64,000 nt of DNA from Rhodamnia argentea (taxonomy: Eukaryota > Streptophyta > Magnoliopsida > Myrtales > Myrtaceae): the NCBI RefSeq assembly GCF_020921035.1, contig NC_063152.1:32091494-32155493 (forward strand). The letters are read 5' to 3'. Each line of letters begins with the position of its first letter. Within the stretch, counting starts at the first letter, position 1. Below are positions 7,901 to 35,500 of the stretch, in pieces. Both the position numbers and the translations under genes were made by a program. The notes beneath the pieces were generated by a model. That model saw nothing but the letters and a program-made list of their open reading frames with translations, made no database searches and had not been told where the DNA came from.

Positions 7901-10900
7901 CAAGACTTAGTTCAAATTAACACACGGTGACTCATGCTTTCATTATCCTAATGTACTTCAAATTTAGTGCATAACTAGCCCAAGCATAGACCAAGCAAAG
8001 GCAACTAAAAAAGAACCAAAAATAACATGGTAACAATGTCGACAATAGATCAGGCATACCTTATGGGGCAATTGAGACATATACGAGATGCCACCTCTAT
8101 TATGTCGGAGTCTGAAATATGGAGACAAAAGCAAGAAAAAACCATTTTATTAGGTAGTGGAACATATTGTTCTCATCGAATGAGAAAACGCAGCAACTGC
8201 AAAGCAAATTGCATCAACCGAACTTTTCTCTTGGACAACACACCTGAATCTGCTGCAGCAACGGTTGCTGGAACATAATCTAATAGCGTTGATGAATCAG
8301 GTAGCGATGCCACACTCATAAAGGCAACGATTATCACATAATGACCTTTTCAAAAATTAAAAATGTCACTTGGCGAGGCTTACTCCGAGGGAAAAAAAAA
8401 AAAAAAAGGTGGGAGGAGAAAAATATTTACTCAAGCATACCATCAAACTGGCCAACCGCTTGGAGAAGGTTTGTTCCGTATTTAAGCACTTGCGCGACAA
8501 TAGTAGGCATCTGAGGTCCAGTGTCCTAACAGCGTCCAAGGAAATAAAATATAACATTTCCGATCAAAAGAAAAGAGAAACCAAATAATTCTTTATCTCA
8601 ATTTTACTGCCTCAACAATACATTGAATTCATCTAAAGCATTAGAAAGACATGAACCATGAAGGCATTCGTTCTTCTCTCTACTCCCCTTCCATTCAGTA
8701 GAAAGCTACAAAACCAAACCAAGAAGATAACGACATTAGAATAACTCAAAAAATCACATTTAGGAAGTTAACTGAATCAGGAAAAGTCGCACCTAACTTG
8801 TGGAGGAGTTATGATACATGCAGATGTCTCTATGTTATCTGTCCGTGCTACAAGTAACCTCTGTAAGAAAGACAGTTCAGCAGCAAAAATTCTGTCATTC
8901 CTATCTCAAGATATCAGGATATCCGTTTGAAAGACTTGATGTCGAGTTTGAAATATATAGAAGGAAGAGAAAGCAGGTCGTATTATTTAAACATTACAAG
9001 CCCACAGCACAAGAATGCTCCGCATGGCTCGAAATACATATGGAGGCAATTATGTATTTATACATCAAAACCAAATGAAAAATCTAAATCTCTCAGTAAC
9101 TTAGACATGCAAATGGAAGGAGGCGGATGAAAAGATTTTTTTCATACCATCGAAAATAAAGCGACTGGGGATAGAGTGAAAATATCTGAATCATGCAGAA
9201 TTGCTATGTCAAGATAAGAAAAAGAAATGAAAAGATCAGGACTACCTGTGGATGAAGACAATAAATCTCATAGCTGCTAGCAGAAAGACGAGTACAAATC
9301 TCATTGGTTCAAATAACAGAAAAGATGTCAATATCAAGAAGTCAGACACCAAAAAGAAAATTCCCATCAGGACACCCATCAGGACAAAGGAAAAACTTGG
9401 GTCCTAACCTTACCTCTACGTTCTTTTTCCTATCTTGTTCTCTCATTTCAGTCTTTCTGAACAGAAAAACGTAAGCTCTCTCTAATTTTCTAAGAGAAGT
9501 TTCAAATAGAATCAGGAAAACATCTTTTCCCCCTTTGTGAAGAGTTAAGAGTCCCGTATGCAATAGATTATCATGATATTTATATATGTAGAGAGACTTC
9601 AGTGCAACAACCAATGCTCAGTCATTCATCTCACTTCTAGCAAATACATCATGCCAGCATGTTTCAGTTGCTCCGCGAGGCATAGCAAGAATCATTGTCG
9701 AGTTGTCTGAATGTTGCTATGTTAAGTTACATAACCACAATGGTAGATTCAGAGGTTACTTACTACTTTCTCTTCTGCAGAGTGCACCATGCTCTTACAT
9801 ATGGGAAAATCACTGACAAATGCTCCATATCCAGGCTGCAAACCAACCAGAAAAGGCAAATTTATACTGATGGTGACCCTCAATAATTATCATAGTAGAA
9901 AAAGCTAAGAGTGCTACCTCTACTTCCAGCGAAGTAAGAATTTGGCCCATCTTCAGCTGTGGATAGAATCTGCGAAAATATTATATAAAGAGAGGAAAAT
10001 AAGGAAGCAATGTGAACATCTCAGTGGCAACTGATAAATTACAATATATGAATAATTTATCACAATCCTAACAACAGAACCTTCTTCAATAAATGTAGAA
10101 TGGAAAAAGAAAATTTATTCATACTGTTCTTCAACCGGACATCTAATTCATAGAACTTGAAACATCATTCAGGTTTTGATATAAAAATTGCACTAATCAC
10201 TGACCAACTTAGGGACAACTAGACTTATGAAATTAATTAAAAGGCAAACAGCCCATAGCTACCTGGTTGAACTTAGTTCTTCTGGAAGGCTAATAAAAGC
10301 TATTCAGTCAACTGTACTATTTAACTGACAAATTAAGTATGATGGAGGAATAAAACAGTCTGATGAGAAACAAGAAGCTCCTCATGTAACAAGGACTCGA
10401 AACATATCATAATTGAGAAACATGGAAAATCACACAACCCTGAAAGACTTTACCTTGCCATAATAATTGAAACTAGGGAAAAAGAGGAAGTACTTCCAAC
10501 AGTAGTGTCTCTTGGAATTTGAAAGCTTTTCCCAATCTATACGCAATATCAGCAGTTGCAAGCAAAGTCAACAGCCCAGATTACAATTATAACAGCAAGT
10601 GGTTTAAGAACAGAGAAGAGCATACTTCATCAACAAGGGCAAGGAGCTCTTGACAATCCTTCTCTGGAAACCATTTAAATTTGCATGCATTCTACAATGT
10701 TCAACAAATAGAAATAGACTCTCATAAGATTAACAAAATAACTCATAAAAGCCACATGTTGGCTGTGAAACATAAAATTAAGGATGCTCCGAGTCAAATC
10801 AAATTAAGTACCCTAACAGAGATCATCAGAACCATTATAATTGCACGATTGAAACCATCATCTTTAAGAAGGCAGATCTAGATAACAAAGAAGAAGATTG

Positions 10901-13248: not shown

Positions 13249-13379
13249 CACTCGAATTTGGAGCGCATTCGAGAGGGAAATTTGTGCCGCAAAGTCTCTG
13301 GTGCTTTTGCGGGTTTGAATTGAACCTTCGCAGTTTTTCTTTTTATTGGAAAATTTTCGTCGGCAGTTATTTCGTGTTT

Positions 13380-15260: not shown

Positions 15261-15479
15261 GGGATGGAAACATGAAGCTTCATGTTTATATAAAGTCGGA
15301 TTTCGATAATTGGTGCTCCCTCATGTCTTAATTAGTGATTTATCTTCCTTCTATAGATAAAAACTAATGTTACATTTCGCTTGTCGAATCTGTGGTAGAA
15401 TTTTTCTTTCTTATTTCCATGAAAATTTAAAGAAACAAGCACTTAAGAACACTTTGTTTGTTTGAAAACCATCACTAAC

Positions 15480-16265
15480 AATAGCTTAAAAGTGGCCTGA
15501 TATCCTAAAAAAACTCTCCAAATTTAATTCTTGTCCTAATTTTACCTTTTGTCTGATAAAAAACTTCTCAGTCACAATTCTACCATAATTTTTTTTGTCT
15601 TATAAAAAACCCCAACTTTAGATACAATCCAAATTCTTCCCTAAAGTTCTTTTTGTCTCGTAAAAAAACCTTCAACTTTCGATCCAGTATCAATTTTACC
15701 TAAACTATTTTTACCTTATAAAAAGTTCTCAACTTTAGATTCAGTTTCAATTTTACTCTATTTTTTTCATAAAAGATCACAAACTTTTACTTGAGTCATA
15801 TATTTGCCTCTATTAACTCTCTGTCAAAATTGCCTTTAGTGATTTTGTGCTCGGTCTTTGACCTCTCGTGTTTGGGAATGTTCCACCTCCCGCAGTCAAA
15901 GAGCTCGCGCTCGTGATGCTTGAATACCTCGTGTTTGGGAGTTTTTGATTTCTAGTTGTAATGAGAAATTTTGGACGCATGGTTAACGAGGGCGGATATG
16001 TGACACAAATAAAAGTTTGTCATTTTTTATGAGACTATAAAAAATTTAGGGCAAAATTGTGACTGTACGGTAAAATTGGGACAAGATCTAAAGTTGAGAG
16101 TTTATGGTAGAACTATGACATAATCTAAAGTTGAGGGCTTTTTTTTTTAATGGACAAAAAAAAAATGTTTACGGTTAATTAGGATTGAAGCTAAAGTCTA
16201 AAGTTTTTTATGAAATAAAAGGTAGAATTGGATCGGGAGCTAAAGTTGGAGGTTTTACAGGACAT
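15480..16265. mobile_element. Fold-back element with ~60-bp subrepeats
   Basis: The left arm, about 15485-15790, holds several degenerate direct repeats of about 60 bp (TTATAAAAA...CAACTTTAGAT...AATTTTACC). The right arm, about 15990-16265, holds the same motif inverted (GATCTAAAGTTGAGAG...). A 150-bp core near 15840-15990 contains the text TCGTGTTTGGGA twice. No protein domain is seen. A 141-codon AT-rich open frame overlaps the right arm and continues beyond it. I judge it spurious. Confidence 0.6.
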
Positions 16266-16531
16266 TATGCTTATAATGAATTAAGTAAGGAAAGAGTTAC
16301 TCAATTCATTAGGTATTGTATGTTTCTAAACATACCAATAATTATCACAATTCTACGTGCGATAAATAAAATAGTAATCAGTCATCCATTTTCCGCGATT
16401 ATCAAACAACTTTATTTTTGTTTTCAATACTTAAATTCGATGTTTAAATTCTTTATTTTTGTTATCAATTCTATCAGAAGAGCTTTCTATCTCCTTCGCC
16501 ACAAACTCTTCATTTTTTTTTTATTCGTGTA

Positions 16532-16705
16532 TATTCTAAGCATTTATCTAATGTATTACCATTTTAAGTTTCATGGTAAAATCATTGAGGTAGATAGAAT
16601 GACGAGGTAACTTCTGTGGTAATTAAGTTCCGGACCCGAGCTAGGGATCCCAAAGATCTTGGGAGTAAGCCTTACACGCCTTTCACCACTAGATGAACTA
16701 TTGCA
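16532..16705. repeat. Segment shared with 31.16-31.33 kb
   Basis: About 170 bp here match 31162-31328 in the same orientation, including GATAGAATGACGAGGTA and AAAGATCTTGGGAGTAAGCC. Both copies lie upstream of a PIAL copy, so this probably marks the right edge of the segmental duplication. An independent dispersed repeat is the alternative. Confidence 0.65.
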
Positions 16706-16814
16706 CTGGTGTTTACCATTAAAATTTAGCCAAAAGGATAAGAGACCCGAATTATGATTAGGTCGAATTGTTGTCGGATAGACTTTGTCAATGAACGGGT
16801 TGACGTAGCGTGGT

Positions 16815-17045
16815 AATATTGGAGGAATTGTCCAAAAGTCCCTCAACATATTTTACAGTGGCCACTTTACTCATAAACATTTTGATTTGGCCAATTTAGT
16901 CTTAAACTCTTTGACGATTTTTCAATGTAGTCATCCCAATCAATTTTGGTCGGAAACCATTAATGTGGTTATTGATTGTCCTATGTGGCATGATATTGAT
17001 CAGTGCTAATTGGACAATTTTTGCAATTTTTAAACTTCTTTTGTG
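16815..17045. repeat. End of a 'CTAAACTTT..CCAATTTAGTC' type inverted-repeat element
   Basis: The phrases 'ccaatttagtcttaaac', 'caattttggtcggaaacc' and 'ctatgtggcatg' match one arm of the long-TIR element at 49.25-50.29 kb. They also resemble partial copies at 61.6-61.8 and 62.7-62.8 kb. Only one arm is recognisable here. No coding content. Confidence 0.55.
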
Positions 17046-17227
17046 ATTTTTTTTTCCACAATTCATATTCCCGGAAGGACGCAGAGATCGTAAGACACAT
17101 ATTGCCAGACTTATTATCAGTGAACCGCACATGTTCAGGAAAGATCGGACTTTATCGCTCACTTAGAGGGAGTGTATGTAATTAACATTCTGTTGTCTTG
17201 GACTCAAACTTAACATCTGCATACCCT

Positions 17228-18791
17228 TCACTTCCGCATAAGGAGAACCACAGTATGAGCTGCAATACTCCGGTTTTCTCCGAGGCTATCGGCCTACTCG
17301 TGAGTTTTCGGCTTTAAGGTTAACAGCGGTCGTATCTGCTCCGGGCAGCTCACCGAGGCTTTCCCCGATAGCTTCCTTGTGCGGGCTGACTTTTTGGTCT
17401 CTGGAGAACCAAGGTTTGCATCCAAGTTTCCATTCTCATAACTTGCTGCCTCGTGCATGAGCCGAACCTGAAGGTACCATCACACAAGCTAACATGGTTA
17501 AATTGCTAATCTTTACAAACCACAAGCAGGAGGTGGAATACAATGACTATACTACCAAAAGCTGCACAGACGAGTGTGGGAATGCACATGATAGCAGGAA
17601 CTCCCTACAACATTATAAAGCCCTCTGCGGGGGGCAAGACTACAAACTTTTAAGATCATCATCTAGCAAGTCGATTTGTTCTTAATTCTTACTATTCCTA
17701 GAGTAAAAATATTTTAAGTTCTGCTACACTTGATAAGGAGAAGACTTCAAAGGTCAGAAGTTACATGCTGGCACAGCAGGAAACAACACAGAGCCCCTTC
17801 ATGTCCTCATACAAGGATTCTGGGAAAGTATACCAACTAAGAAGAGCAAGATCATACAATGCCAACAGTAAGTTTGACCTTCTAAAACACTCGCACCTTG
17901 CAGTAAAGGAGAGAAATTTACTAGTGAAACTATCTTGATCATCTTGACCTCTGATTCATGCCTCTGAATGGGCCTAAGTACATAAGTATTCAGGTCGACC
18001 ACTACAATAGCCCAAAAAAGTATTCCACCTAAAGCTTCATTCCTTCATACACAGCACACGACACTCAAGCAGCAGATAACTACCCTCAAGCAAACAGCAG
18101 AATAAAATTAACCATGCCCAATCAAGATGGCCGGGGAAGGATCTTGTAAACAAGAAATCCCAGTGAAATGCTCAATTGATGAACTACGCAGTGCCAACTG
18201 CCATCATCTTATCAGATCACCTTCCAGGGAGAAAACAACCGTGAGAAGTCTGGAATTATTTTCAGAAAACGAAGCAGCCCCGTTACGTGGATGTTAAACA
18301 AAGAAGGGGCCGTCAGGTCAACTCACAGCTTCCTTGATGAAAACAGATGAAGGTGCACCCTTCCACTTGGGATCATTCTCAGCGAATATCTGCCCTATAT
18401 CTGGAAGCCCCAGAGCGGCCAAAATCGCATCCACCACACAATGAAACAACACATCCCCTGCAACCACAAAGAAAGCCCCAATTTGCGATCAGAAAAGAAA
18501 AGAAAAGAAAGCCCCAATGAAACAGTAATCACTCCCGAGTCGAACTTAACTCCAAACAACAACAACAACCACCACAAAGAACCCTTAATGGGAACCACCC
18601 AATGAAACAACAAGCCCGGTAATCAATCCAACACCCACTAACAGAAAAGTTTCATTCGAAACAAGCATATGACAAAAAGAAGAACGAAGAAACAAGCATA
18701 CAACAACAAGAACGAAATGATTACCATCAGAGTGAGCCTCGCAGCCTCTGTCGTGAGGTATATTGGTGCCACCAATGATCAGTGGGTACCC
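17228..18791 (-). pseudogene. ispF: ispF (MECDP synthase) pseudogene, 5'-truncated
   Basis: Three minus-strand exons keep IspF sequence and introns: about 18791-18725 (GYPLIIGG, IPHDRGCEAHSDG), 18457-18327 (DVLFHCVVDAILAALGLPDI, AENDPKWKGAPSSVFIKEA) and 17467-17228 (VRLMHEA... ending LGENRSIAAHTVVLLMRK). IspF makes 2-C-methyl-D-erythritol 2,4-cyclodiphosphate in the plastid MEP pathway. The transit peptide and the first catalytic stretch with the metal-binding DxH are missing: homology stops at 18791. The last exon needs at least two frame changes between NLDA and VSPHKEA, and has TAG in place of the lysine codon after AKTHE. Retained introns mean it arose from a genomic duplicate, not a reverse-transcribed copy. 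The function must come from another locus. Confidence 0.87.
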
Positions 18792-20161
18792 GTGTTACCC
18801 CTAAAACCATAAAATGTGGGGACATGACACGGCCGTCCTTCCACTCAAAGGACACAGTCTCAACCACAAACCCGATATCAAAGTATATATTTCCAACTAT
18901 CTCAAATGTACTCATCCAAACAGCAACTACAAAAATCGTTGATATCGCTCTCGTCCTATTAGACGAAGAACCGAAAAGGGCATTGAAAGGAATGAGGTAA
19001 GCAACCACAGCTATCAGTGAGTAGTATATCTTAGCAGATTTGATGAGCTTCCCATTTGATCAGTTGAAGATCCTCTAGTTGCATGAGAGATGAACCGAGA
19101 GGTAAGGAGACTCATGAGGGAGAAAGGAGTACACCCCCTCCAGAAGCACCCACTATGCATATTTACAAAACCATAACGAAATTCAATACTTCGATTCATA
19201 ATATACGTACTACTTCAAATATAAATCATTTACTTTCGGCGAACATTTGTACTCATACGGTCGAAATTATCAATGAATTACGCTGTCATGTGAATAGTAA
19301 AAGTACTACAATTCTCATTATTTTCAAATACGGCAGTTCATATGCATATAATTCCAAAAGCAGGTTATATATTTCCACAAAATTATATACATATTACAAA
19401 TTCTCAATATAGCATATATATGAGGTTAAAAACAAGTTTAATCTTTTCAACAACTTGTTTCCTCAATAATATCAAAATCAAAACATCAAAGGTCTATTCC
19501 ATTAGAAAATGAATGAACTAACAAATATTTCGCGAAAAATGATAATTTATGTAATTTACAACAATAATTAAATATTTATTGTCCACGAATATATTTAGAC
19601 AATGATCATTTTCGAAAAAATAATCCTTAAATTATTAATTTTTTGTGAAATAAGCAAAACAATCCAATGGAAAACTGAATTTTAGGATGCTTATCGTGAA
19701 CAATGCGATAGAATCTTATCATATCAAGGGTGTGATCCAGAGAGAATAATTTTTCTAGTTAAGGATTTTCTATTACCCACTACCTTGATTTCTTGTTAGA
19801 GTCGAAAAAAAGAGGCGAAAGCTTCTCGATTTCGATCTTTACATTGAGAAATAATTTTACAAATGGACCGTCCAACAAACATGAAATTGAAAAGGAAAAA
19901 AACCAAGAAATTGTCTGAAAAAGGATAGACCCTATCAATAGCCAGAAAGACGACGTTGACTATAGATATAACTGCGCACACATCTTACAGGGCTAAATTA
20001 TTACATCGATCATTACACCGGGTAAAGACCTGCGCATGCACCCGGATGACCTATGCCTATGGTTGCGAACACGCTGCAAAAAACTACCAGCCACCATTAA
20101 ATCCAAAATCGGTCCTTCATCTGCTAATGGGCAGTCGTCGTGGCATGATGATCGAGCTTGG
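18792..20161. other. Spacer between ispF pseudogene and PIAL-B
   Basis: 18792-19100 carries short open frames on both strands with no recognised family. 19100-19470 is AT-rich and could be old retroelement DNA, but I cannot assign it. From about 19590 to 20160 the sequence is similar to about 4320-4914 downstream of copy A. No gene is supported. Confidence 0.5.
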
Positions 20162-23100
20162 TCACTGAGTACCTGATGGGTAACCCAGATGACTTCTGCC
20201 ACCAGTCATAGGATTTGGACCCCGAGGGTGAGGCTGAACCGTAGGTGAGGCTGAACCCACAGCGGATGGGGCTGGAGTAGCTTGAGCCTGTTGGGTTGGC
20301 CGGATCACAGTGAGATTATTATCCAACTGCGACTGTCCAGAGATGCTTCCGCGCATTGGACGTGTAGGACGCCAGTGTTGCTCTGCCGACAACTCCCCAG
20401 TACCGCCGCCACTTGTGGGAGCATGTACCCCAGGGTTAGCTCCTTGGTCACCTGCTGATGCCAAGAAACTATCAAGTAGAGAGGTCCCCACTCTCGAGGG
20501 CTGATCCTGCAACGGCACCGGAGTTTGCGCAGGCATGGCTGGTTGTTGAGCAGAAGGCCAGAACCTCGATGAACCAGGAATTTGACCCACTGAAGCTGGA
20601 GTGCGAGGAGGAATTGGTCTATTCATGCTTAGAGAATGGGTAGTGGATCGTGGATTCACCTGGTTCAGAGCCTGCTGCCGGTGCGAGTTTTGGAATGGTC
20701 CAGAGGGCGTTCTAGGACGACCTTGGAGTTGACCAGGAGACGGGCGCACCATCACAGGCATTTGGACTGATTGCCCCGTGGAGAATCGATCCTGATAGTA
20801 ACGTTTTAGTAGAAAATGTATCAGACAAGAAAACATAACCTTTCCGTTCATGTCTTTATTACATATTAATGACAATAACTGGCTGGAGTCTTCCCAATCT
20901 AGGAACATGCAACAAGGGAAAAACAAACCTGCATTGATGAGCTCCGGACCAATGCTGATGGAGAGATGTTCGAGACTTGAAGGGGATTCACAGGATGTCT
21001 AGGAATATGCTGCTGCCTCTCCAAGTGCATTCCTCCACTTCCAAAACCTTCTAGAGGCTGAATTGTAGACATTGCATGCTGCGGAGACATGGAAGGACCA
21101 CCCGGCGACATCATACCCTGTAATCGCTGCAATGGGCTTGGCGTCTGAGCATGGGCTGGGGGGGCCTGCATTCCTAGAGTTGCATGTCTAAGTATGGAGG
21201 GCATACTCCTATATTCATTTCCAACAGCTGTATTTACAACTGGTGACTGTTGTATTTGTAGATTGTTGGGAGCAGACAAATGAGTTTGCATCATAGAGTC
21301 CATGAAATTAGCATTTCCAAGAAATTGAGCATCTTGAGCTGGTGTGGGAGAGACGGCACAAGCCAATGGCGAAGTGGCAATAGGAGAGATTGCCTGAGGT
21401 AGACCCCCATGTATTTGCATCTCCTGCCCAGCGTTTGATGTTGAATGAGCAAGTTGGGTTACAGTGCGACTGTTGTTTAATGTAGATGGCAAAGATGGAT
21501 TTGTTGGAAGGCTCTGAATCAAAAAATCAGATTGCAAAGGTTTCCTGTCTTCAGGTTCAGAAGTAAAGGCTCCATCCATTTCATCATCATCCCCTGTTAG
21601 ATCCAAAACATTGGGAATGGTATTTGGAGAAACAGTAGATTTTTGCTGCTCAGACCCTTGTTTAAGCCAGCTCAGGGTCTCATTGGGAGTCTCATACAGA
21701 TCATCATTGCACTCCATAACTGCCTTCCATGAACCATCAACAGTGATTATCACCTCAGAAATGTCATCACCCACTTCTTGCAGGACCTGTCAGACAGAAA
21801 ATACTGAAAATAAGAAATTCATGATTGAGAGCGCACAGAGATGCACCTTATTGCTTCAAAAATACTATATGGAAGATGACAACAAGTACCAAGTTACCTT
21901 CAGAATGTTTTGATCAACACGAATGTCGGTAAAGCAGACAGGTTGATTGCAATGGGGGCAGCGCCAAGATGGTTTCCTTGAATTTATGCTGAGGAAATTA
22001 CTATAATCGAAACACTACAAAAGCCACATCACATATTACTGAAGTAGCTGGGAAGGAGGCCAAAGTAATTCCAAAATCAACATGAACTTTTAGCCTTCAT
22101 CAACACTACCATATCAAGCAATTGTCATGACACTTTTAACAGTTTCGGGTAATGAGCAACAACAGAAAGATTTTTGTGTACAACCAGCAACTTGCAATCA
22201 AGCAAAGAGATGACGAAAAGCTTTATAGTTCTGCCATCAATGTACTAGGGCTATGGCAAGCCAAAATCGACAATTAAACCTTCAAAGAGCTCATGATGTT
22301 AAAAAACCACCAAAAATATGAGGCACATATGCACACCCAATCATTTTCCCTAATATTCTCCCGATGTTCCAGAAAAACTGAGAAAATTTCCAATAAACTA
22401 TGCTTTACATTACCATCATAGGACGGTGAAATGACCACTCACCTGATGGTGTTTGCAGGACTGTCCTTTAACAGGTAACTGGATACGGGTCCGGCTGTTT
22501 AATATGGGAAGGATACGGCATTATCAAATATAGAAATAGCTTCAAAAAAATCAACACAGGAATCTAAAGATGAACAATGTCGGCTATATAAATCAAACCA
22601 CATTTCCAAGGAGAAGGAAGAAAAAATCAGCATAGGCAGTAAAAACCTAAATTTCATAGAATCAAGCTTCCATGATGAACCATCATACAGTTTAGTAATT
22701 GTGGGACAGACAAGTACCTAACAATCTGTAAGTAATGTGCACAGTAGGTATTATAGAATCATTGTCCCATAAGCAGGAAGAATTTGACATCAACTCTCTA
22801 AAGGCAGTAATCAGTAGTCGTCAGAGGCACGTCTTTCACCTAAGTTTACTTTCCCACAAGCAGCCCAGATCATATCAATCAAATGAGTAATTGTTATCTA
22901 TTAAACATACTATAACTAAGGAAGCAACAACTATGACCTGTGGCACCGACATCTAACAAAGCATGTAAGAAAAGCATAATTCCCCTTCCAAATAAATTTG
23001 TCAAAGAATCGTGGTTCTACACCTTTTATTTTCATATCATCCGAAAGTCCAAGACTTACTTCAAATTAAACACACGGTGACTCATCCTTTCAGAATCCTA

Positions 23101-26100
23101 ATCTACTTCAAATTTAGTGCATGACTAGCCCAAGCATAGACCAAGCAAAGGCAACTAAAAAAGAACTAAAAATAACATAGTAACAATGTTGACAACATTG
23201 GATGAAAAAAGAAAAACAACGTTGACAATACATCAGGCATACCTTATGGGGCAATTGAGACATATACGAGATGCCACCTCTATTAAGTCGGAGTCTGAAA
23301 TATGGAGACAAAAGCAAGAAAAAACCATTCTATTAGGCAGTGGAACATCTTGTTCTCATCGAATGAGAAAATGCAGCAACTGCAAAGAAAATTTCATCAA
23401 CCAAACTTTTCTCTTGGACAACGCACCGGAATCTGCTGCAGCAATGGTTGGTGGAACATAATCTGATAGTGTTGATGAATCAGGTGGCGATGCCACACTC
23501 ATAAGGGCAATGATTATCACATAATGACCTTTTCACAAAATTAAAAATGTCACTTGGCGAGGCTTTCTTTAAGAAACCAAACAAAAAAGGTGGGAGGGGA
23601 AAAATATTTACTCAAGCATACCATTGAACTGGCCAACAGCTTGGAGAAGGTTTGTGCCGTACTTAAGCATTTGACTGACATCATTAGGCATCTGAGCTCC
23701 AGTATCCTAACAGCATCCAAGGGAATAAAATATAACATTTCCGATTAAAAGGAACAGAAAAACCAAATAATTCCTTATCTCAATTTTATTGCCTCAATAA
23801 TACATTGAGTTCCTCTAAAGCATTCAGAAAGACACGAACCACAGAGGCATTGGTCCTTCTCCCTACTCCGCTTCCATTCAGTAGAAAGCTACAAAACCGA
23901 ACCAAGAAGATAATGACATTAGAATAACTCAAACAAATCACATTTCGGAAGTTAACTGAATCAGGAAAAGGTCGCACCTTACTTGTGGAGGAGTTACGAT
24001 ACATGCAGATGTCTCTATGTTATCTGTCTGTGCTACAAGTAACCTCTGCAAGCAAGACAGTTTGGCAGCAAAAATTCTGTCATTCCTATCTCAAGATATC
24101 TGTTTGAAGGACTTGACGTCAAGTTCTAATTTTACAGAAGGATGAGAAAGCAGCCAATATCCATGCCAGGAAATTAAAAACATAAATTCAATAGCCCAAA
24201 CAGGATGTCCAAATAAGAACATCTATGCTTTCGCGACTGGTGCAACAGCCCCTGGAGCAACAGCAAGCACCAGTTTGACTTGGGAGGTGGTGATTTAGTG
24301 TCTTCAATCCATTAGGAGTACCCTCACGAATGAAAGTAGGACAGATATTTGAATGCTCGCTCAAGTTAGTGGGGGATCTACGAGATTATCTAATAGCACC
24401 ATTTGATGAGATATATGAACAAGAGGCTTCGAGAAAACTAGCGTTTTCTGAATTATATGAAGCCAGTTAGCAAACAGCGAATCTGTGGGTATTTGAACCC
24501 GAGTATCCAGGAAAAAGCAGAATATTTGATGTAAGAACAGGAGATCCTTTTGAACAACCTGTTATAATAGGAAAGCCTTATATCTTGAAATTAATTCATC
24601 AAGTTGATGATAAAATACACGGACGTACCCTGCAGCTCGTACTGTTTGTTGACCATAATTCATGAGCCCAGTTACCATAGGGAACATATCGTAAGGATCT
24701 ATCAATAGTTTTATGTTTGTTTCTTTCTCTTATTTGATATTTGAGAGAAATCGTAAATCTAGAATATCCTATTCCTTTTTCTTTCCTTTACAATGAAAGG
24801 AGTTGGAAAGAAGTTGTTAATAATAGATTACCGAGAGAAATGGGCAAAAGAAATTTCCATCCAAGATTTAATAATTCATCGACTCCCGGGAAAGGGTAGA
24901 AGAATGGGACCTATTCTGGGACATACAATGCATTACAAGCGTATGTTCCCTAAACCTTACGGAGTAAGACATGGATTTCTCAATAAGATAGATCCTTTTG
25001 ATTACATGATGTCCATTTCTATAGATAAGATAGATCAATCAGATCATATCTTCATGTACAAAATACAAATATTTGGTTATCGATACATACGATGTCTTTT
25101 TTCTGACAATGGGATGCACCCTAGTACATGTTCCTCGACGCCGAGGACATCCCCCAAGAGCGGGGGATTTCATGACATTTCTGATTGGTTGTATTGTGTT
25201 TCTAATCAGTTCTACCATGAATTAGTTAATGATCATCAATAAGCGAACTAGCATAAGAAGATGGATTCGAAATCCTTTATTTTTCATGTCAACCAAATCA
25301 CTCTTTTGATAGTGGAAAAATAAATTTCTTTATGACACAAATAATCCACTTGACTTAAAACACATATGTAGGCAATAATTTATGTATACATCAAAGCCAA
25401 ATGAGAAATTTAAATATCTCAATTACTTATACATGCAAAGGGAAGGAAGCAAATGAAAAGATCTCTTTTATTCTATCGAAATTGCAGTGACTCTGAACAA
25501 AGTGCAAATATCTCAATCATACAGAATTGCTATGTCAAGATAAGAAAAAGAAGTGAAAGATTCAGGACTACCTGTGGCTGAAGACTATAAATCTCATAAT
25601 TGCTAGCCAAAAGACGAGTGCATATCTCATTGGTTCAAATTATAGAAAAGGCGTCAACATCAAGAAGTCAGACAACAAAAAGAAAATTCCCATCAGGACA
25701 AAGGGAAAACTTGGATCCTAACCCCACCTCTACATTCTTTTCCTATTTTATTCTCTCGTTTCAGTCTTTCTGAACAGAAACATATAGGCTCTCTCTAATT
25801 TTCTAAGAAAAGATTCAAATAGAATCAGGAAAACATCTTTTCCCCCTTCGTGAAGAGTTAAGAGTCCTGCATGCGACAGATTATCATGATATTTTTTATA
25901 TGTAGAGACACTCCAGTGCAGCAATCAATGCGCAGTCATTCATCTCACTTTTAGCAAACACCTCATGCCAGCATGTTTAAGTTGCTCCTCAATGCATAGA
26001 AAGAATCATTGTTGAGTTGTCTGAATGGTGCTATGTTAAGTTTACATAACTATACTGGTAGATTCAGAGGTTGCTTACTATTTTATCTTCTGGAGAGTGC

Positions 26101-29100
26101 ACCACACTCTTAGATATGTGAAAATCACTGACCAATGCTCCATATCCAGGCTGCAAACCAACCAGAAAGGCAAGTTTATAGTGATGGTGGCCCTAAAAAA
26201 TTATCATAGAAGAAAATGCTAAGAGTGCTACCTCTACTTCCAGCGAAGTAAGAATTTGGCCCATCTTCAGCTGTGGATAGAATCTGTGATAATATAAGAT
26301 AAAGAGAGGAAAGTAAGGAAGCAATGCCCTGAATGATCAGTGGTAAAGAAATTAAGATCAACCTGAACATCTCAGTGGCAACTGATAGTTACATAGACCC
26401 TTCTTCAATAAATGTACAATGGAAAAGCAAATGTATTCATACTGTTCTTCAACTGAACATCCAATGCATAGAACTTGAAACAACATTCAGGTTTTGATAT
26501 AAAAATTGCACTTACAAGCGACAAACTAAGGGACACCTAGATCTATGAAATTAATTAAAAGGTAAACAGCCCATAGCTACCAGGTTGAACTTAGTTCTTC
26601 TAGAAGGCTAATAAAAGCTATTCAATCAACTGTACTGTTTAACGGACAAATTAACTATGACAGGAACAAATCACTGTCTGATGAGAAACAAGAAATGCGG
26701 CTCAGCATGCAAGTAACACCCCCCCAAAAAAAAAAAAATAAATAAATAAATAAAAAGGACTTGAAACATATTATAATTGAGAAGCATGGAAAATCACACA
26801 ACCATTAAAGACTTTACCTTCCCATAATAATTGAAACTAGGGAAGAAGAGGCAGCACTTCCGACACTAGTGTCTCTTGGACTTTGAAAGCTTCTCCCAAT
26901 CTATATGCAATATAAGCAGTTGCAAGCAAAGTCAACAACCCAGTATTACAATTATAACAGCAAGTGGTTTAAGAACAGAAAAGAGCCTACTTCATCAAAA
27001 AGGGCAAGGAGCTCTTGACAATCCTTCTCTGAAAACCACTTAAATTTGCATGCACTCTACAATGTATAACAAATAGAAATGGATTCTAATGAGATTAAGG
27101 AAATAACCCATAAAAGCCACTTATTGGCTGTGAAACATAAAATTAAGGATGCTCCGAGTCAAATCAAATTAAGTACCTTAACAGAGATCATCAGAACCAT
27201 GAGAATTGCAAGATAGGAACCATCATCTTTAAGAAGGCAGAGCTAGATAACACACAAGAAGATTGGATTAGTCTTTGATAAGATAACATAGCATCAAACA
27301 CTAACAGATAGTCACAGTCACAACCAAAAAGCAAACAGTTTAAAACTTAAAAGCGAAAAGCCAAAATCGAGAGAATGGTGTTTCTGACTTCTTTCTTGGT
27401 TGGGCTTAAATTTTTTCTTGTTTTCCTCTTAAAGAAGCCATGATTTACCGTAAATGTAATCAAAATGAACTACTTTCTATAATTCTCATAGTTAAGAGAA
27501 GATAATACTACTGTAATAATGTTGCTAGTCACATCCAACATTTTTATGCAAATGAAAACCAATATGCCCCAAGTTAAAAAAGAAGCCATCCACACAGGCT
27601 GCAGTATACTCGTATTAGAGCCACCAGAAACATGAAATTTCCTCGAAGAACAAGCAAACTGCATATATGCCGCCTTTAATGAGAAAATCATCTTAACAAC
27701 CTCAATCCATGGATAAACATAATAAGGAGCCACAAATTGGTCTCTGCAAACAGGCAAACAGCCAGCCCTGTTGCTGGGAAAATGAAAGATCATGAGGGTA
27801 ATACTCTAAAAGGATGAGCACATCAAAATGTGAATGCAGACAGCTTAGTCAGCCAAGAATGTCAACAGAAAATGTTCAAGTCATCCTTCTCTTATCAATT
27901 CCCCTTTAATGATAAATGTAGGTCTTTATCATGTGCACATACTATGGAGAACTATTGTTTCATAGCAATGTTGGTCTTGTTGGTGGAAGCATGAATAATC
28001 AGCAGATTGTATAAACAGACACTCAATCTTAGAATATCGGGTATCAATTGATGAGACTTACATTAAGTACATTTCAATCGCGCATGAGAGAGAGAGAGAG
28101 AGAGAGAGAGAGGAGCCATATCCAAAGTGGGTAGAACTCTCTCTTACATAGAGAAAGTATTTCATTTATTGTTTGCATCACTGACAAGGCTAAACAAGTC
28201 AATTACAATGTCCCGTGACAGGAATTCCAACCAATTTGGCGTTTTAGTTTCAGATCATATGGTCTCTGATTTACTTGCTTCAACACGTGTCATTGCCACA
28301 TGATAGTATCTGATGTACAAAACACCTTCTCCTCTTGCATGACGTGCAGCCATTTCATAGTTTTGGTAATCGGGGACTCAAGTAAAAGCCATAGCCCACA
28401 TTTGCACTACGTCTCGAAAGGTTCTACAAATCTCATTCAGAGAGAAAAATGTTCGGAGTTCTGCTAGCAATAAAATCAGCAACATGAGGGTGCGATCTTG
28501 CTGACAGCATGCATAGCAACAGAACTAAGAAATGACGATCATTGCATGGATTCAACAATTCATGATCAATACCCTTAACTTATTCAATCATCGTCCTAAC
28601 ACAATACTCTTGAATCAAAAACCTAAATAGACACGACCACAAAACAACACAAATTGCACAAAGCACGTGCAGGCGGGTGTGCGCAAAAGAACTAAGCTTA
28701 AGTTCCGCCTCACTAGCAAGTACATATTCAAAATGTTAATCAAGCTACAGTTTAACAAAAGCAACCTGTTCACATGCTATTTTGATGGAACAATCAATTA
28801 ATCAATATCGCTATCGGAGACCCAGCGAGCAAACTTAGTTGCAAGAAGAAGGTGGAAAGCGAAAGTCATCGCAAGCACAGTTTGTGACCAAACTTACCTT
28901 TTTCAGTAATGCGGGTAACTCATGAGCTTTGGGAAGAACCTCATTTTTCGCAACAGCATAGTCAATGCCTCTGATTCTCGAAATCAATGAAGCCAGTGAG
29001 CCAAAAGAAAATAACGGAAGACAAAGCGGGTGAAAAAAGGGGAGGACGACAGAGGAATGTGGCAGAAACAAACAATCCACACAATGTTGATACTAATATC

Positions 29101-29658
29101 CACATCCACCACAATCACGACACCATTCTTTCTCACATTTATGGATATACACTGAAAAGGGTCGGGAGTACACATGATTGTTGCAAAACATCCATCGAGA
29201 AAGAAGTTCAGCAGAAAGTTCCCAGCTGAAACAGACTCAAAAGCTCTAGATGCTACACGATAGCCACAACTTTTAGTAGACACTCGGGCTATTCGACGTT
29301 AACGAGGATGCTACGCTAAATCCTCCCCCAGGCTTTTACGAAAAACCGCTTCGACACACGTGGGAGTGTGACTTGGGACGTACTTGGCGAGACAAAGGCA
29401 CGAATTCAGGAATTCCATGGGAATATCGCCAGATGGCGACGAGCCGGAGCCCTTGTCGGCGCTGAGATAGAGAGACAACCACTGGGCGATGGCGGCCACC
29501 CTAAATGCGTTGCGGACAGAGGGGGAGAACCGGATCGAGGCGTCAGACGCGGGCTGCTGCGGCTGCGGCTGCTGCTGCTGCTGCTGCAGCGGCGGCGGCG
29601 GCCGCGGCGGGGGGGAAGGGAGCTGCTGAGGGACCTGAGTGGTCGCTGCTCCGATCAT
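20162..29658 (-). CDS. E4 SUMO-protein ligase PIAL-type, copy B (899 aa)
   Basis: Sixteen minus-strand exons mirror copy A one for one: 29658-29384, 28970-28898, 27242-27177, 27056-26991, 26900-26818, 26283-26232, 26150-26079, 24045-23978, 23888-23840, 23706-23622, 23528-23427, 23294-23243, 22494-22443, 22014-21898, 21786-20929, 20791-20162. The total is 2700 nt, all in phase. Fourteen exons have exactly the length of their copy A counterpart or differ only in exons 1, 15 and 16 by multiples of three. Exon 1 is longer because of a P/Q-rich expansion encoded by CTG/CAG-like repeats. Exon 15 lacks 14 codons and exon 16 lacks the 20-codon repeat plus a few. The SP-RING at about residues 343-404 keeps CKHHQCFDYSNF and [12 protein letters not shown] is closer to the family consensus at some positions (VAQTDN, PVCFTD). 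The donor of exon 1 is AA|GTACGT. Intron 7 carries a plastid-DNA insertion. Confidence 0.93.
24154..24222 (-). pseudogene. psaB: Plastid-derived psaB fragment in PIAL-B intron 7
   Basis: The minus strand reads [19 protein letters not shown] followed by HGYW over 23 codons. This matches the stretch near the C terminus of photosystem I subunit PsaB ([20 protein letters not shown]), with a few substitutions. It begins exactly where alignment to copy A intron 7 stops, so 24153/24154 is the left border of the insertion. It is a nuclear relic with no function expected. Confidence 0.8.
24300..24626 (+). pseudogene. rpoB: Plastid-derived rpoB fragment in PIAL-B intron 7
   Basis: 109 codons match the plastid RNA polymerase beta subunit near its C-terminal third: [63 protein letters not shown]. 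One in-frame TAG replaces the lysine codon after YEAS, and there are several substitutions, so the copy has been decaying in the nucleus. Homology stops after KIHGR, where the next plastid piece begins. Confidence 0.92.
24627..24687 (-). pseudogene. ndhI: Plastid-derived ndhI 5' end in PIAL-B intron 7
   Basis: The minus strand from ATG at 24687 reads [19 protein letters not shown], which is the N terminus of NdhI, the iron-sulphur subunit of the plastid NDH complex. It abuts the rpoB piece with no spacer. ndhI lies in the small single-copy region and rpoB in the large one, so these are not neighbours in a plastid genome. Confidence 0.85.
24688..25116. other. Rest of the intron insertion, probably organellar
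   Basis: This AT-rich DNA lies between the ndhI and rps12 pieces and is absent from copy A. Part of a 149-codon plus-strand open frame (24793-25242) crosses it. The frame continues through the antisense of the rps12 piece, so it is not a real gene. I suspect plastid spacer DNA but could not name the source. Confidence 0.4.
25117..25218 (-). pseudogene. rps12: Plastid-derived rps12 exon 1 fragment in PIAL-B intron 7
   Basis: The minus strand reads [20 protein letters not shown] followed by [11 protein letters not shown], matching the 5' exon of plastid ribosomal protein S12 with few changes. The first codons of the real gene are missing or altered, and homology ends after CTRV. The insertion as a whole ends near 25345-25360, where alignment with copy A intron 7 resumes. 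Confidence 0.85.
28086..28112. repeat. (GA)n microsatellite in PIAL-B intron 2
   Basis: A run of GAGAGA is longer here than at the matching place in copy A (near 11720-11745), where it is short and interrupted. Confidence 0.8.
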
Positions 29659-29781
29659 CACTCGAATTTCGAGCGCATTGGAGAGGGAAATTTGTGTCGC
29701 AAGATCTCTGGTGTTTTGTATGGTTTTGTGGTAGTTTCTTTTCGGTACGGCTTTTGGGTTTTTTTTTTCTTTTAAATTTTT

Positions 29782-30789
29782 AAATAAGGGCTTGGGTGCG
29801 TGACTGCGTGGGCTCATTTTTTCAGAGGTGAAATTTATTTTAAATATAAATTTAAAGTGAAATTTATTTTAAATAATAGTTTAAAGTGGCATAACTGTCC
29901 AAATAAAGACGTGAAATAGTCATGTGGTCTCAGAAAAGCCAACCTTAGGAGTATTTTCGTTATTTATCTTTACGATTTTTTCCCTTTTTTATATTTTAAA
30001 AATTAAGAAAATGGCCAAAAAAAAATAAAAAAGTTAAAAACAGATCCATCGTCTTCATCACCTTCCCATAGCCAACCGCCGAGACCAACATGGACGACGA
30101 CCACCACCTATGTACACCAAGCCACCACCGGTGGGGCGCCGGCGATGATCAGCAGGGTCATTGACACCTCGACAAGGGTCAACGACCTTGCCGACCAAGG
30201 CCCTCGCCAAAATTGAGAGAGGGCCACAACCTTCTCCTAGATCGGCCCTCACCCAGTGTCATTGACACCCCACCGATCATATGGCTGCGGCCATAGGCGG
30301 GAGACTACCGACGAGAGGGAAGATTTGTTGGCGGCGTTGGCAAAGGGCCAACGGGAGGAGGGGGTGAGGAGGGAGAAAATGCACAACTTCCGGGGTTCAT
30401 GTTGGGATTGACGAAGGGAACGAGTAGAAAAGATAGGGCCTCGAGGTGGTCGCTACGGTGCGAGGCAAAGCGGAGACTCCGGCGAGGGCGATGGTGACGG
30501 TGGTGGTGGTGGTCTTCCATGGTGGGTTGCGGTTGTTGGATGTGTGAAACTTCAAGGTGATTAAGATGATGGAATCTTTTTTTCAATTTTTTTTTAACTT
30601 TTTAAAAAACAAAAAAAAAATCATAAAATTAAATGACAAAAATGCCTGTGAAGTGAGACCTTTTCCGAGACTACATAACCACTTCATGCCCTTATTTGAC
30701 AAAATAATGGCACTTTGAACATTTATTTAAAATAAGATTCACTTTAGGCCATTATTTGATAAATGAGGGCATTTCAAGCTCTTATTTGA
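29782..30789. mobile_element. Inverted-repeat element with GC-rich core upstream of PIAL-B
   Basis: About 200 bp arms are inverted copies of each other: AAATAAGGGCTTG at the left matches CAAGCTCTTATTTGA at the right. The arms continue through GTGGTCTC..AAAAG, and GATCCATCGTCTTCATCACC also has an inverted partner. The core, about 30050-30550, is GC-rich with no recognised domain. Copy A lacks it: its upstream text GGGTTTGAATTGAA..TTCGCAG is continuous at 13311-13345, while in B the matching piece is displaced to about 30818-30850. Similar GGCTTTTGGG text flanks both ends. The left edge is about 125 bp from the copy B start codon, so it may affect its promoter. Confidence 0.8.
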
Positions 30790-30959
30790 TTTTTTTTTTT
30801 TGGGTTGAATGTATGGCTTTTGGGGTTTGAATTGAATTTTTTCGCAGTTTTTTTTTTATTATTGGAAAATTGAATTTTGGTGGGCAATTCTTTCATTTTT
30901 AGCATATTTTGGACTTCTTTTCCTCTTCTTTTTTTTTTCCCTCAGAGGCGGTTGTGTGT

Positions 30960-32100
30960 TAAGTCCTAAACCTTGTCGTAAAAAAGCAATGGAATGCTAA
31001 AACTTTCAAAAAGTGCAATCAATGACTCACTTGCACTTTCATGAAAAGTTTTTAGTTGATTACGCTTTTTGAAAGTTTTAGGATTCGATTGTACTTTCGT
31101 AACAAAATTTAAGATTTTTAGTGTATTTATCTATTATGTTATTATTATTACCTGTTAACATTCTTATTCTAAGCCTTTATCCAATTTATTGGCGTTTTAA
31201 GTATAAAATCATTGGGATAGATAGAATGACGAGGTACTTATGCGGTAATTAAGTTTCTAATCTGAGCTAGGGATCCAAAGATCTTGGGAGTAAGCCTTAC
31301 AAGCCTTACGCCACTCGATCAAGTAATGTGGCCGGGTTTAAAATGATCACGCGTATTATCTACAAAATGAATGAACAAACGTTTAATTTTTATCGTCCAC
31401 AAAAGTATTCATACATAAGTCGTTGTCGATGATGAAGATATTTTTCATTGGCTAATTATTTTAAACAATATGAGCGATCATCACCGGAAACATATTTTCT
31501 AGATCATTCATTTTCGAGAAACAAACGGAGCCTTAGACTTACCTATTACCCATATGTCAACTTGAATTTTCGTTGAAAATTTGTAACTCAAGTGGGATGC
31601 ACTCGTGGCAAAGTTGAATAATTCGCATAGTATCTTTCAACCGGGGGTACGTCGCCGACATGTCGGTTCAAAGACATTGTGCGAAGCACATGTCGACGAC
31701 GCATGAGCCAAAGCTCCGATGATTCACCCTGGCGCCGGACGCTACTATACAACTCTACTTAGAGGTAACCATCAGAAAACGACGTGGAGTCTACCTTTTC
31801 CATCATCTCTTTCTAATTTAAGAGAAAATATTTTTCTTCCCTTCATCCAAAAGGAATAATCCCGAAATTTACGTCCAAGAGTTCAAACAAAGCGGTTTAA
31901 TGACTTTGCTCGGGTTCAAGAAAATTAATAATGTTGAGAGCCTAAAAAGAAAGAGGGTGATTATTATTTCTAAGGAAGTAAATGAACGAGGATCTTTTTT
32001 TTTTTTTTAAGGATAATTGATTAATAAAGAAATAAAACCTTTTTTTTTTTGGTCGGAGAAATAAAACATTAAAAATGGGGGAAAAAACCAATTCAGCTTA
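30960..32100. other. Intergenic DNA with small repeats
   Basis: About 30970-31130 holds a short imperfect inverted repeat (TCAAAAAGTGCAATC / GATTACGCTTTTTGAAAG). 31162-31328 matches 16532-16705. 31352-31535 is AT-rich and ends in GAAACAAACGGAGCC, the end motif also seen in the element at 41.2 kb. 31540-32100 shows nothing recognisable apart from T-runs near 31998 and 32040. Confidence 0.5.
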
Positions 32101-32270
32101 TTTGCTTGCGCGCGTGCTTACGTGGGCCGGACCATTCCCATTTGTGGATAATGCCACGCCAAAAAGCGCACGACGCGTTGCTCGACACCCGGTGGCGCGT
32201 GCATCTGATCATACTGCACCCCTCCGCACCGGAAAACCCACAACCCCGCCTCTCTGCTTTTCCCGAAAAC

Positions 32271-32278
32271 TATAAATA
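32271..32278 (+). promoter_or_regulatory. TATA box of the 670-aa protein gene
   Basis: TATAAATA lies 263 bp before the start codon and is followed by a CT-rich, AUG-poor stretch typical of a plant 5' leader. Transcription should begin near 32300-32310. Confidence 0.7.
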
Positions 32279-32356
32279 CCTCCCAATTTCCCCAATTTCG
32301 TGCCCTAGAAACCATCTGTCCTCTCTCCCTGTCGTCTCTTTTACTTCGCCGCAAAA

Positions 32357-32455
32357 ATGCGCTCTCGACACCCGACCTCCATCGCCGCTCGGTCGTCTCC
32401 ACCCTCCCGTCGAATTCCTCACTCGCCGATGCTTCTGTCGCCGTCCGCCTTGTAA
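32357..32455 (+). other. Upstream ORF 1 (32 codons)
   Basis: This ATG-to-TAA frame in the probable 5' leader has the context AAAAATGC. The peptide is basic and serine/proline-rich. It ends 79 bp before the main start. Translation is not proven. Confidence 0.5.
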
Positions 32456-32495
32456 CCTGGCCGGCCCTTTCTTCTCGTTAGATCGCCCGGGATCT

Positions 32496-32534
32496 ATGGT
32501 GCTAGGGTTTCCAGGCCTCGTGGGAGGGCCGTGA
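32496..32534 (+). other. Upstream ORF 2 overlapping the main start (TGATG)
   Basis: A 12-codon frame (MVLGFPGLVGGP) ends in TGA, whose final A is the A of the main ATG at 32534. This arrangement can couple termination to reinitiation and may limit translation of the downstream protein. Confidence 0.55.
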
Positions 32535-35500
32535 TGGACGCGGTGGAGCTTCCTTATCCAGTTGATGTTGCGGCGGCTGCAGTCTCTAAGCTTATGGGGT
32601 CGGACGGGTTTGTCAGTAGAGCTGGCGTTGGCGTCGCGGCGAAGAAGGTCGAACCTCGCGGCAGCGATTCGGACCGCGTGGTCGGGATTCCTCCGATCAG
32701 GCCGTGCGGCATGGCTGCTGACAAGAAAGGTGAGTGTCTTTTTGGGTTCATTTCTTTCGGTTGGGCGGTTTTGATTCCTCCAATTGCTTGTATAATCCGT
32801 TTTGAGATTGTATAGCTGGAGAGAAGGGTTGGAGTAGTCTAGAGAGTTTAAAAGCCAGAGGGAGGGTTTACTTTCTTTCTGGATTCGGTTTTATCAATTA
32901 TGTGCAAAAATTAGTGGTTCATGCTGTTTGATTTACTCGTTTGTGCTTCCTCTGGGGAGATTGGATAAGTTCCGAGTCTATGTGAAGGCAAAACGGCGGC
33001 TCTACCTGGAGTTCATGCTTTTCAGATTACTTAAGTCGCTTTACTAACTGATGCTAATATGATAAGTTTGCTCACTAGTGGCTATTTTAACTGTTAAGAG
33101 AAAAACAAAAAAGAGCTGGCGGAAAGGGTCCTTACGTAAAGTGATTTGACTTTCTGCTGGATTGCCTTTGGTCGCAGTCATTTACATCCCCAGCGCGCAT
33201 CTTTCCCTTTCCTCGCTGGTAAATAGACCGGATATTATTCCTCTATGAAAAATGGACATTGCAGTTTTTCGTGGTCTATTATTCTGATCTTTTTGGTTGT
33301 TAGTTAAAAGTCTGGCCTTCATCATTATTTGGATGTTCTGTGAGAGAAATAGAACAACCATTCCTTTGAAAATTTTCTATGAAATTGAGTTGCTTTCCTC
33401 TTATTAGTTCTCATTGAAGGGTTACCTTGTTCTATCATTATCTTTCCAGATGTGGCAACTCCTGTAAATGCTTTGGACATGCCTTCCCAGCATAAAAGTA
33501 CGGAAGCTGAAAATTATAGGCATAATCATCTGCTGCCGGATTTGCATAATAAAGACGTAACTCAGGATCTTCCCAGGACTGATGTGAGTTTTGTTCGTAG
33601 CCCTGGTTCTGAAGATGTTCGATTGCCATGGAAAGCAGGGAAAGTTTCAAGGAACAATAATACATGCTCCAAGAGAGCACGGAGTACTCAAGTTGAAGAT
33701 GCTTCAGCAATTACTTTAGCTGATGAAGTTAAGGGATTGAAAGATAAATCTTTGACAAGAAGTGGCTCTTTAGGTAATTGTTGATATTTCCAATGTCAAA
33801 AGTAGAAGCAATGAGTTGCCGTTAACACATATATGTGCCCGAATAAGTTAACTTTTAACTTTAGGAACTTGAATGTCCCAAGATAGTAGTACTTTTGCTG
33901 TCTAAATTGAAGTTCTTTTGGTCATACTCTAATCCAGCCTTTTCAGTTGCTAATGCTCTATTCAATGGATGAGACTTCAGCTTTCTATAGTATGTTGATG
34001 TTAGAGGGTTAACTTCGATAGTATGGGTGTACATGGGACACAATTTGAAAGTGTTGACTGTAAGCGTGTAAGTCAGATTCCCTTGGCGTTCGTATTCACA
34101 AGGCATTTTTTGATTGCTGATAAGAGGATTTCTTCAGTGAAGCATACTCTCTGGATGGTCTGAATATGAATTTTTACCTAATTTTTGCAGCCTTCTAGCT
34201 ATATGCTAGTTCATAAATTTAGCAGGAGATGCATATCATGTATCTTGAGTTAAAGTCAAAGGAAACCATATTTTCCATGATAGAGATCAGAGAATTTCCT
34301 TCTGTTTTAGGTTCTGCCACTTCCTTTTATTAAAATGTTTTCTATTACGGTTAAAAGTATGCCAGATACTTCTTCCCATGTAATGGCGTCATGGAATGTG
34401 TCATACCTGAAAGGTTGTTTGAGTAATGGTTTAGTTTGACATTATTGAAGGTTTGTACTGTCATTGCTTGTATAGTTAGTACGAATCTATATTTTTTCGT
34501 ACGAGCTAGTACTGATTATGTTTCAACTTTTATGTGCTGTTGCACCACTTCTCAGAGAAAAATCATTTGGGGAAACAGAGGACTGTTGGCAGTAAACGGG
34601 GTGATAGAAGAAACAGCAAAGCCCCTGTCAAGAATAGATATGACTCTTTCGTGATGAGGCCTTGTTCTTCAAGTTTCACTGTCTCTCCAGGAGGAAGCAA
34701 TTTTCTAGGTACAGCTATTCTACATTTTAATCATAGCTTTACCCATTCAGAAAAATTTAAACCAGTTTTCATCTTTGGCAGAGGAGTGAGATTACTGTAT
34801 TGCCAACAGCCAAAGCATTTCAAATGACTCTTATCTTCTTATAGTATTGTTAATAAGTTTATTGTCTGCAAGCCTGCTTAAGAGTGAAACTGGACTCTTG
34901 GCTTGCACTTCAAGAAAAGAGTGGAAGCTGAGAACTGAGTAATGAGCAATTGCATGTTCATAGGCATGGCAGTTTCAGACATAGGCACTGGAGAGTCTTT
35001 TTGATTCTTAATAGTTTGAAACAAAGCATGCCAACTCTGGTTGCGGAACTTTTTCGCATGTTGGTAATTTCCTTGTAGAAGGTGCTGTTTTGGATATAAG
35101 CTTGTTAAGAAAATGTTGTGTGTTCCCCGAAATTAGAGTTTTGTGCATTGAGGGATTTTTTCGATCGCCAGAAAGAGAGGTAGTTAATAGATGCTGTTGT
35201 ACTTCATTGGAAATGAATATCCTACTCCCCCTTGTCCATTCCTGTGGACCAACCAGTACCCATGCACTCACCATAATTTTTACCTTTCATATGTGACTAC
35301 TCCAAAGTTACAGATGCACAGGATATATTGACTGAACCAATACGTATCTTTGCTATTTATAGGAGTTATATCTCAGCTATTTCCACAGGAAAGCAAAGAT
35401 CATCATCATCTACTATCACCGAGTGTACTTATTTTCATCTTGATATTCCCAAGTTCTTATCGCATAACTAGTGCCATGGTGAATGCTTAAAGAAAGTCTA

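What the first reader, a model, noticed from the sequence alone, without database searches (positions are those of the whole stretch)
24154..25350. Mosaic plastid DNA insertion inside a PIAL intron
Within about 1.2 kb, pieces of psaB (minus), rpoB (plus), ndhI (minus) and rps12 exon 1 (minus) lie end to end. In plastid genomes these sit far apart, ndhI even in the small single-copy region. The insertion is missing from the paralogous intron of copy A, which gives a clean pre-insertion reference and precise left border at 24153/24154. Joining of unlinked plastid fragments at one site points to end-joining of several fragments during one repair event.
Basis: partly seen in the sequence, partly recalled or inferred. 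Interest (0 to 1): 0.78.

Follow-up and report, generated by a model that had tools for sequence, protein, structure and literature searches.

The report
Shuffled chloroplast DNA inside a gene
About 1.2 kb of plant nuclear DNA, inside an intron of one of two duplicated genes, is a patchwork of roughly ten short chloroplast DNA pieces joined together, most likely during repair of a broken chromosome; this is a clear example of a kind of insertion already known in plants.

Summary
Window 24154-25333 (1,180 bp) is tiled by ten plastid-type pieces: psaB(-), psaA(+), rpoB(+), an ndhA-ndhI piece(-), rpl23(+), probably the trnV-UAC intron(-), one unnamed piece, rps12 exon 1(-), a spacer upstream of ndhF, and a spacer between matK and trnQ. 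Pieces are 48-330 bp, in both orientations. Two neighbours here, rps12 and the ndhF spacer, lie 56 kb apart in a plastid contig of the same assembly, and the next piece is on another contig. No place listed elsewhere in the assembly runs more than 19 bp past a junction. The paralogous intron (copy A) lacks the insert and has about 30 bp that B lacks. Seven scored joints share 0-4 bp. The four pieces with a true plastid reference are 4.4-6.8% diverged from it. At least five other loci here join non-neighbouring plastid pieces. This is a complex NUPT, most likely made by end joining at a double-strand break: a known kind. The right border is 25333/25334, not 25350. One event versus several, and joining before versus at the break, remain open.

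The parts
24154..24223 (-). piece 1: psaB (near residues 649-671)
   Evidence: peptide matches PsaB, E 4.3e-6, and Pfam PsaA_PsaB; DNA 91.5% to NUPT L044
24218..24300 (+). piece 2: psaA (near residues 486-507)
   Evidence: peptide matches PsaA, E 0.0024; DNA 90.6% to NUPT L045 over 24238-24300
24300..24629 (+). piece 3: rpoB, with a frame change and a stop
   Evidence: peptide matches RpoB, E 2.4e-29; DNA to NUPTs L005, L033, L034; frames
24625..24876 (-). piece 4: ndhA 3' end (24791-24876), spacer, ndhI 5' end (24625-24687)
   Evidence: 94.4% to plastid contigs C23:72408-72658 and C40; ORF order in C23; frame; weak ndhI profile match, E 0.012
24876..24945 (+). piece 5: rpl23
   Evidence: 96.7% to L042 over 24876-24936 and 90% to C7:884538 up to 24945; the longer frame of L042 matches Ribosomal_L23, E 3.7e-15; the window peptide alone gives no PDB or Pfam match
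24944..25012 (-). piece 6: probably trnV-UAC intron next to its 5' exon
   Evidence: 97.1% to L041, which carries a tRNA 5' half beside it (name by eye; Rfam gave no match)
25012..25116 (.). piece 7: unnamed plastid-type sequence
   Evidence: 91.3% to L040 and 84.5% to L043; related stretches in L047, L048, L049
25117..25206 (-). piece 8: rps12 exon 1 (BLAST span 25114-25211)
   Evidence: 93.9% to C23:22992-23089; chloroplast S12, E 1.1e-13; strict break points
25203..25250 (+). piece 9: spacer between trnL-UAG and ndhF (rpl32-ndhF spacer by recall)
   Evidence: 93.8% to C23:79508-79555, upstream of the ndhF frame
25249..25333 (+). piece 10: spacer between matK and trnQ, probably trnK-rps16
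   Evidence: 91.9% to C35:3646-3731; trnQ at 7248; matK side by eye
24153..24154 (.). left border, nuclear DNA to psaB
   Evidence: alignment to copy A
25333..25334 (.). right border, piece 10 to nuclear DNA
   Evidence: alignment to copy A
8977..9018 (.). matching place in copy A, no insert; about 30 bp here are missing from B
19574..29717 (-). copy B of the duplicated PIAL-like gene region (MIZ/SP-RING exon at 21868-22014)
   Evidence: zf-MIZ E 7.4e-08, 32.5 bits, just under the 33.5 cut-off

Best explanation
It is a complex NUPT (nuclear insertion of plastid DNA). Plastid DNA reached the nucleus as short fragments drawn from many parts of the plastome. Several were joined end to end, with 0-4 bp of shared sequence at the scored joints, and used as filler when a double-strand break in this intron was repaired, with loss of about 30 bp of target. 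It has since decayed. Shown: the ten pieces and their order, the unlinked source of those with a plastid reference, the empty site in copy A, and the short overlaps. Inferred: a double-strand break, end joining (classical or microhomology-mediated), and one event.
For: Pieces tile 24154-25333 with ends that abut or overlap by a few bases. Seven of nine internal joints have a usable source on both sides, with overlaps of 1, 2, 1, 1, 0, 4 and 2 bp (the second counted strictly). With 11 joints from four other loci the mean is 1.83 bp over 18 joints, against 0.79 for random plastid joins, P = 0.0008; blunt joints are 3 of 18 against 52% expected. Two further joints that I had left out, both blunt, bring this to 33 bp over 20 joints, P = 0.0016; without the doubtful L007 joint P = 0.0012 over 17. 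No identified piece is continued by another piece, so none was split by a later insertion. The four pieces with a plastid reference diverge by 5.2, 4.4, 6.8 and 6.2%, 25 substitutions in 464 bp. Copy A shows the empty site. Published complex plant insertions have the same signature (PMC6215612, Results and Discussion read; PMC7037861, passages).
Against: For the window's seven joints alone the excess overlap is weak: P = 0.056, or 0.019 if the rpoB-ndhI overlap is counted as 4 bp. Two internal joints and both borders were not scored. Some sources used for the joints are other NUPTs, not plastid DNA, because the plastid contigs are partly withheld. The C-to-T excess that I recall as usual for methylated NUPTs is absent: 8 of 25 changes, against 9 of 25 in reverse. 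No outgroup shows that copy A is ancestral.
Confidence: 0.86

Rival explanations
1. Template switching: a repair polymerase copied short stretches from several plastid DNA molecules in turn, rather than ligating free fragments.
For: Short pieces and 0-4 bp overlaps also fit this. At L038 a plastid stretch (C43 5469-5599) is followed at once by an inverted piece that covers it again (C43 5826-5304), so one template region was used twice.
Against: Among the nine named pieces of the window no source region is used twice, and the sources are spread over the plastome. Many plastome copies per cell also allow reuse by ligation.
Confidence: 0.12
2. Stepwise build-up: a hotspot where single plastid fragments were inserted one after another over a long time.
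For: A fragile site cannot be excluded from one genome. The 250 bp right of the insert differ by 17.6% between copies A and B, second highest of 33 windows (mean 9.8%, range 5.2-18.4%).
Against: No identified piece is interrupted by another, no nuclear DNA is seen between pieces, and the four datable pieces have similar divergence. PMC6215612 reports no recurrent cases among rice mixed insertions.
Confidence: 0.07
3. Transfer of an already rearranged molecule (recombined plastid DNA, plastid DNA in the mitochondrion, or a copy of another nuclear mosaic).
For: Some plastid contig stretches read N and the long searches scored only part of their candidates, so a hidden copy cannot be fully excluded.
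Against: Pieces with a plastid reference are far apart or on other contigs; C14 is not among the matches; no listed place runs more than 19 bp past a junction, and that one (C11:9026850) reads there by eye as trnV-like sequence.
Confidence: 0.05

Closest known systems
Complex NUPTs (several plastid fragments), class (d) in Portugez, Martin and Hazkani-Covo 2018, PMC6215612
   Same: several plastid fragments from distant places and both strands, abutting, with blunt or microhomology joints
   Different: pieces are short here (48-330 bp), ten in 1.2 kb, and a tandem paralogue gives the empty site; that paper did not consider terminal junctions for want of similar genomes
Mixed mitochondrial-plastid insertions (numins), PMC6215612
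   Same: joint structure and proposed mechanism
   Different: no mitochondrial piece found here
Shuffled NUPT clusters of Moringa oleifera, PMC10789010 (abstract and passages read)
   Same: shuffled pieces, up to 11 integrants per cluster
   Different: clusters there are pieces less than 5 kb apart, not edge-to-edge joins
New plastid-to-nucleus transfers in tobacco, as told in the review PMC7037861 (passages); the original, by recall Lloyd and Timmis, was not held
   Same: mixtures of plastid segments end-joined at microhomology
   Different: those are recent experimental events; this one has decayed by about 5%

Membership tests
complex NUPT | lies in nuclear DNA | tested here: met
   window is G000:C3:32091494-32155493, on a 35.9 Mb contig; inside a gene region with a paralogue
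complex NUPT | two or more plastid fragments not contiguous in the plastome | tested here: met
   C23 positions 22,992, 72,408, 79,508 and C35 position 3,646; others by protein identity
complex NUPT | joints blunt or with short microhomology | tested here: met
   0-4 bp at the 7 internal joints scored, of 9
complex NUPT | empty site with small target deletion, no target duplication | tested here: met
   copy A alignment, about 30 bp missing from B; no outgroup
complex NUPT | methylation-type C-to-T decay (recalled; usual, not defining) | tested here: not met
   8 of 25 against 9 of 25 in reverse
numin (mixed mitochondrial and plastid insertion) | at least one mitochondrial fragment | tested here: inconclusive
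   C14 (probably mitochondrial) is not among the matches; piece 7 is unnamed
transposon-borne capture | target-site duplication at the borders | tested here: not met
   piece 1 and piece 10 lie directly against intron without a repeated target; no direct repeat of 60 bp or more in 15000-35000; shorter terminal repeats were not searched

The most novel reading that the evidence does not exclude
In this species plastid DNA repeatedly enters the nucleus already broken into pieces of roughly 50-500 bp and joined into dense mosaics by a recurring step before integration, active over a long time (mosaics about 1-5%, 5% and 5-10% diverged from the plastid), so that such mosaics are a regular product of one fragmentation-and-joining process rather than rare accidents.
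Probability: 0.2. Interest if true: 0.5.

Novelty: new member of a known kind. Interest (0 to 1): 0.3.

Why it matters
It is a clean, base-level example of a dense plastid mosaic with a paralogous empty site. The same assembly holds more joined plastid pieces of different ages, so the genome would suit a census of piece size, joint type and age, which could separate ligation of fragments from template switching.

Tried and rejected
Direct repeats around the insert: none of 60 bp or more in 15000-35000. RNA-mediated origin of the rps12 piece, because it first seemed to end at the exon 1 boundary: rejected, since the plastid base at 25116 differs and the strict break lies about 3 bp inside the exon (boundary by recall). 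Mitochondrial origin: C14 is not among the matches. A shared junction at C11:9026850 (19 bp past 25012, 85%), and at four C3 copies that run about 14 bp past 25250 (79%): short, poor extensions; the C11 one was read in L046, the C3 copies were not fetched. Naming piece 7: five relatives were read and it stayed unnamed; L047 joins it to plastid sequence of the ndhF frame, L049 by eye to ndhK. Rfam on L041 and L046: nothing. Window rpl23 peptide in PDB and Pfam: nothing; solved through L042. My first reading of piece 4 as an ndhG-ndhI spacer was wrong; the C23 order shows ndhA.

Full report
The window lies on a 35.9 Mb contig of a 346.7 Mb assembly of an unnamed plant. Two copies of a gene region lie in tandem: A about 4308-13307 and B about 19574-29717, 81-89% identical in blocks. 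Copy B has extra sequence between 24153 and about 25345 that A lacks. Base-level alignment puts the insert at 24154-25333 and shows about 30 bp of A that B lacks.

The insert was searched against its own genome. Hits tend to stop and start at the same places, and these cut the insert into ten pieces. Searches scored 40 of 99 and 40 of 102 candidates, so their lists are partial. Four pieces match plastid contigs of the same assembly: the ndhA-ndhI piece (C23:72408), rps12 exon 1 (C23:22992), the spacer before ndhF (C23:79508) and a spacer between matK and trnQ (C35:3646). C23 reads, by eye, from ndhJ through rbcL, accD, petA, rps12 and psbB to ndhF, with withheld stretches read as N. psaB, psaA, rpoB and rps12 were named from solved structures. 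rpl23 was named through a longer relative, L042. Piece 6 is probably the trnV-UAC intron, from a tRNA 5' half beside it in L041 (by eye). Piece 7 is unnamed but lies beside plastid sequence in L040 and L047.

Joints. Seven of nine internal joints have a usable source on both sides, with overlaps of 1, 2, 1, 1, 0, 4 and 2 bp. The script gave 4 bp for the rpoB-ndhI joint because both sources differ from the window at one base; I count 2. Random joins of the plastid contigs give a mean of 0.79 bp. The window alone is borderline (P 0.056; 0.019 with the 4 bp value). Eleven joints from L038 (5), L040 (4), L032 (1) and L007 (1), where hits end within 15 bp of each other, give a mean of 2.0 bp (P 0.002), and all 18 give 1.83 bp (P 0.0008). 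On checking I found two more joints of that sort that I had left out (L040 1177/1190, with about 12 bp between hits, and L034 1607/1608); both have no overlap, and with them the result is 33 bp over 20 joints, P 0.0016. The L007 joint may be an internal deletion rather than a joint of two fragments; without it and without the two additions P is 0.0012 over 17. Joints whose source on one side is unknown, such as those of piece 7 in L040, L047 and L049, were not scored.

Age. The four pieces with a plastid reference carry 25 substitutions in 464 bp, 5.4%, with no piece standing out. A and B differ by 5.2-18.4% over 33 windows of 250 bp, exons included, mean 9.8%, so about 5% per copy. If rates are equal, the insert is about as old as the duplication. 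It is not in A, so it arose in B after or around the duplication, unless A lost it, which cannot be tested without an outgroup.

Generality. Of 22 nuclear loci fetched by similarity to the insert (L004-L008, L031-L034, L038-L050), at least five join plastid pieces that are not neighbours in the plastome: L032, L034, L038, L040 and L047; L049 does so by eye. L038 and L040 are dense; L034 shows only two pieces. This is a lower bound, since much of the plastid reference is withheld, and the sample is not random. Matches of L038 are 95-99% identical to the plastid (one weak 49 bp match at 80% left aside) and those of L040 90-95%, so such mosaics formed at different times.

Known context. Complex NUPTs with fragments from distant places and both orientations, joined blunt or by microhomology, are described in PMC6215612 (Results and Discussion read). 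The review PMC7037861 says integrated fragments are usually mixtures of plastid segments end-joined on microhomology (passages). PMC3989485 and PMC10789010 describe mosaic and shuffled clusters (passages). The finding is thus a new member of a known kind. After checking, confidence in the best explanation was lowered slightly, from 0.88 to 0.86, because the pooled joint statistic weakened and the search lists are partial.

Noticed in passing
L038 (G000:C6:23201187-23204284): young plastid mosaic of at least eight pieces at 95-99% identity, with one plastid stretch used twice in opposite orientation next to itself
   Followed up: partly
L040 (G000:C9:22326538-22329629): older dense mosaic with plastid matches of 40-167 bp at 90-95% identity; shares piece 7 with the window
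   Followed up: partly
window 25345-25594 and 24102-24153: intron beside the insert differs by about 17% between copies A and B, against a mean of 9.8% over 33 windows
   Followed up: no
window 25012-25116; L040, L043, L047, L048, L049: one unnamed plastid-type stretch recurs at several loci with different neighbours
   Followed up: partly
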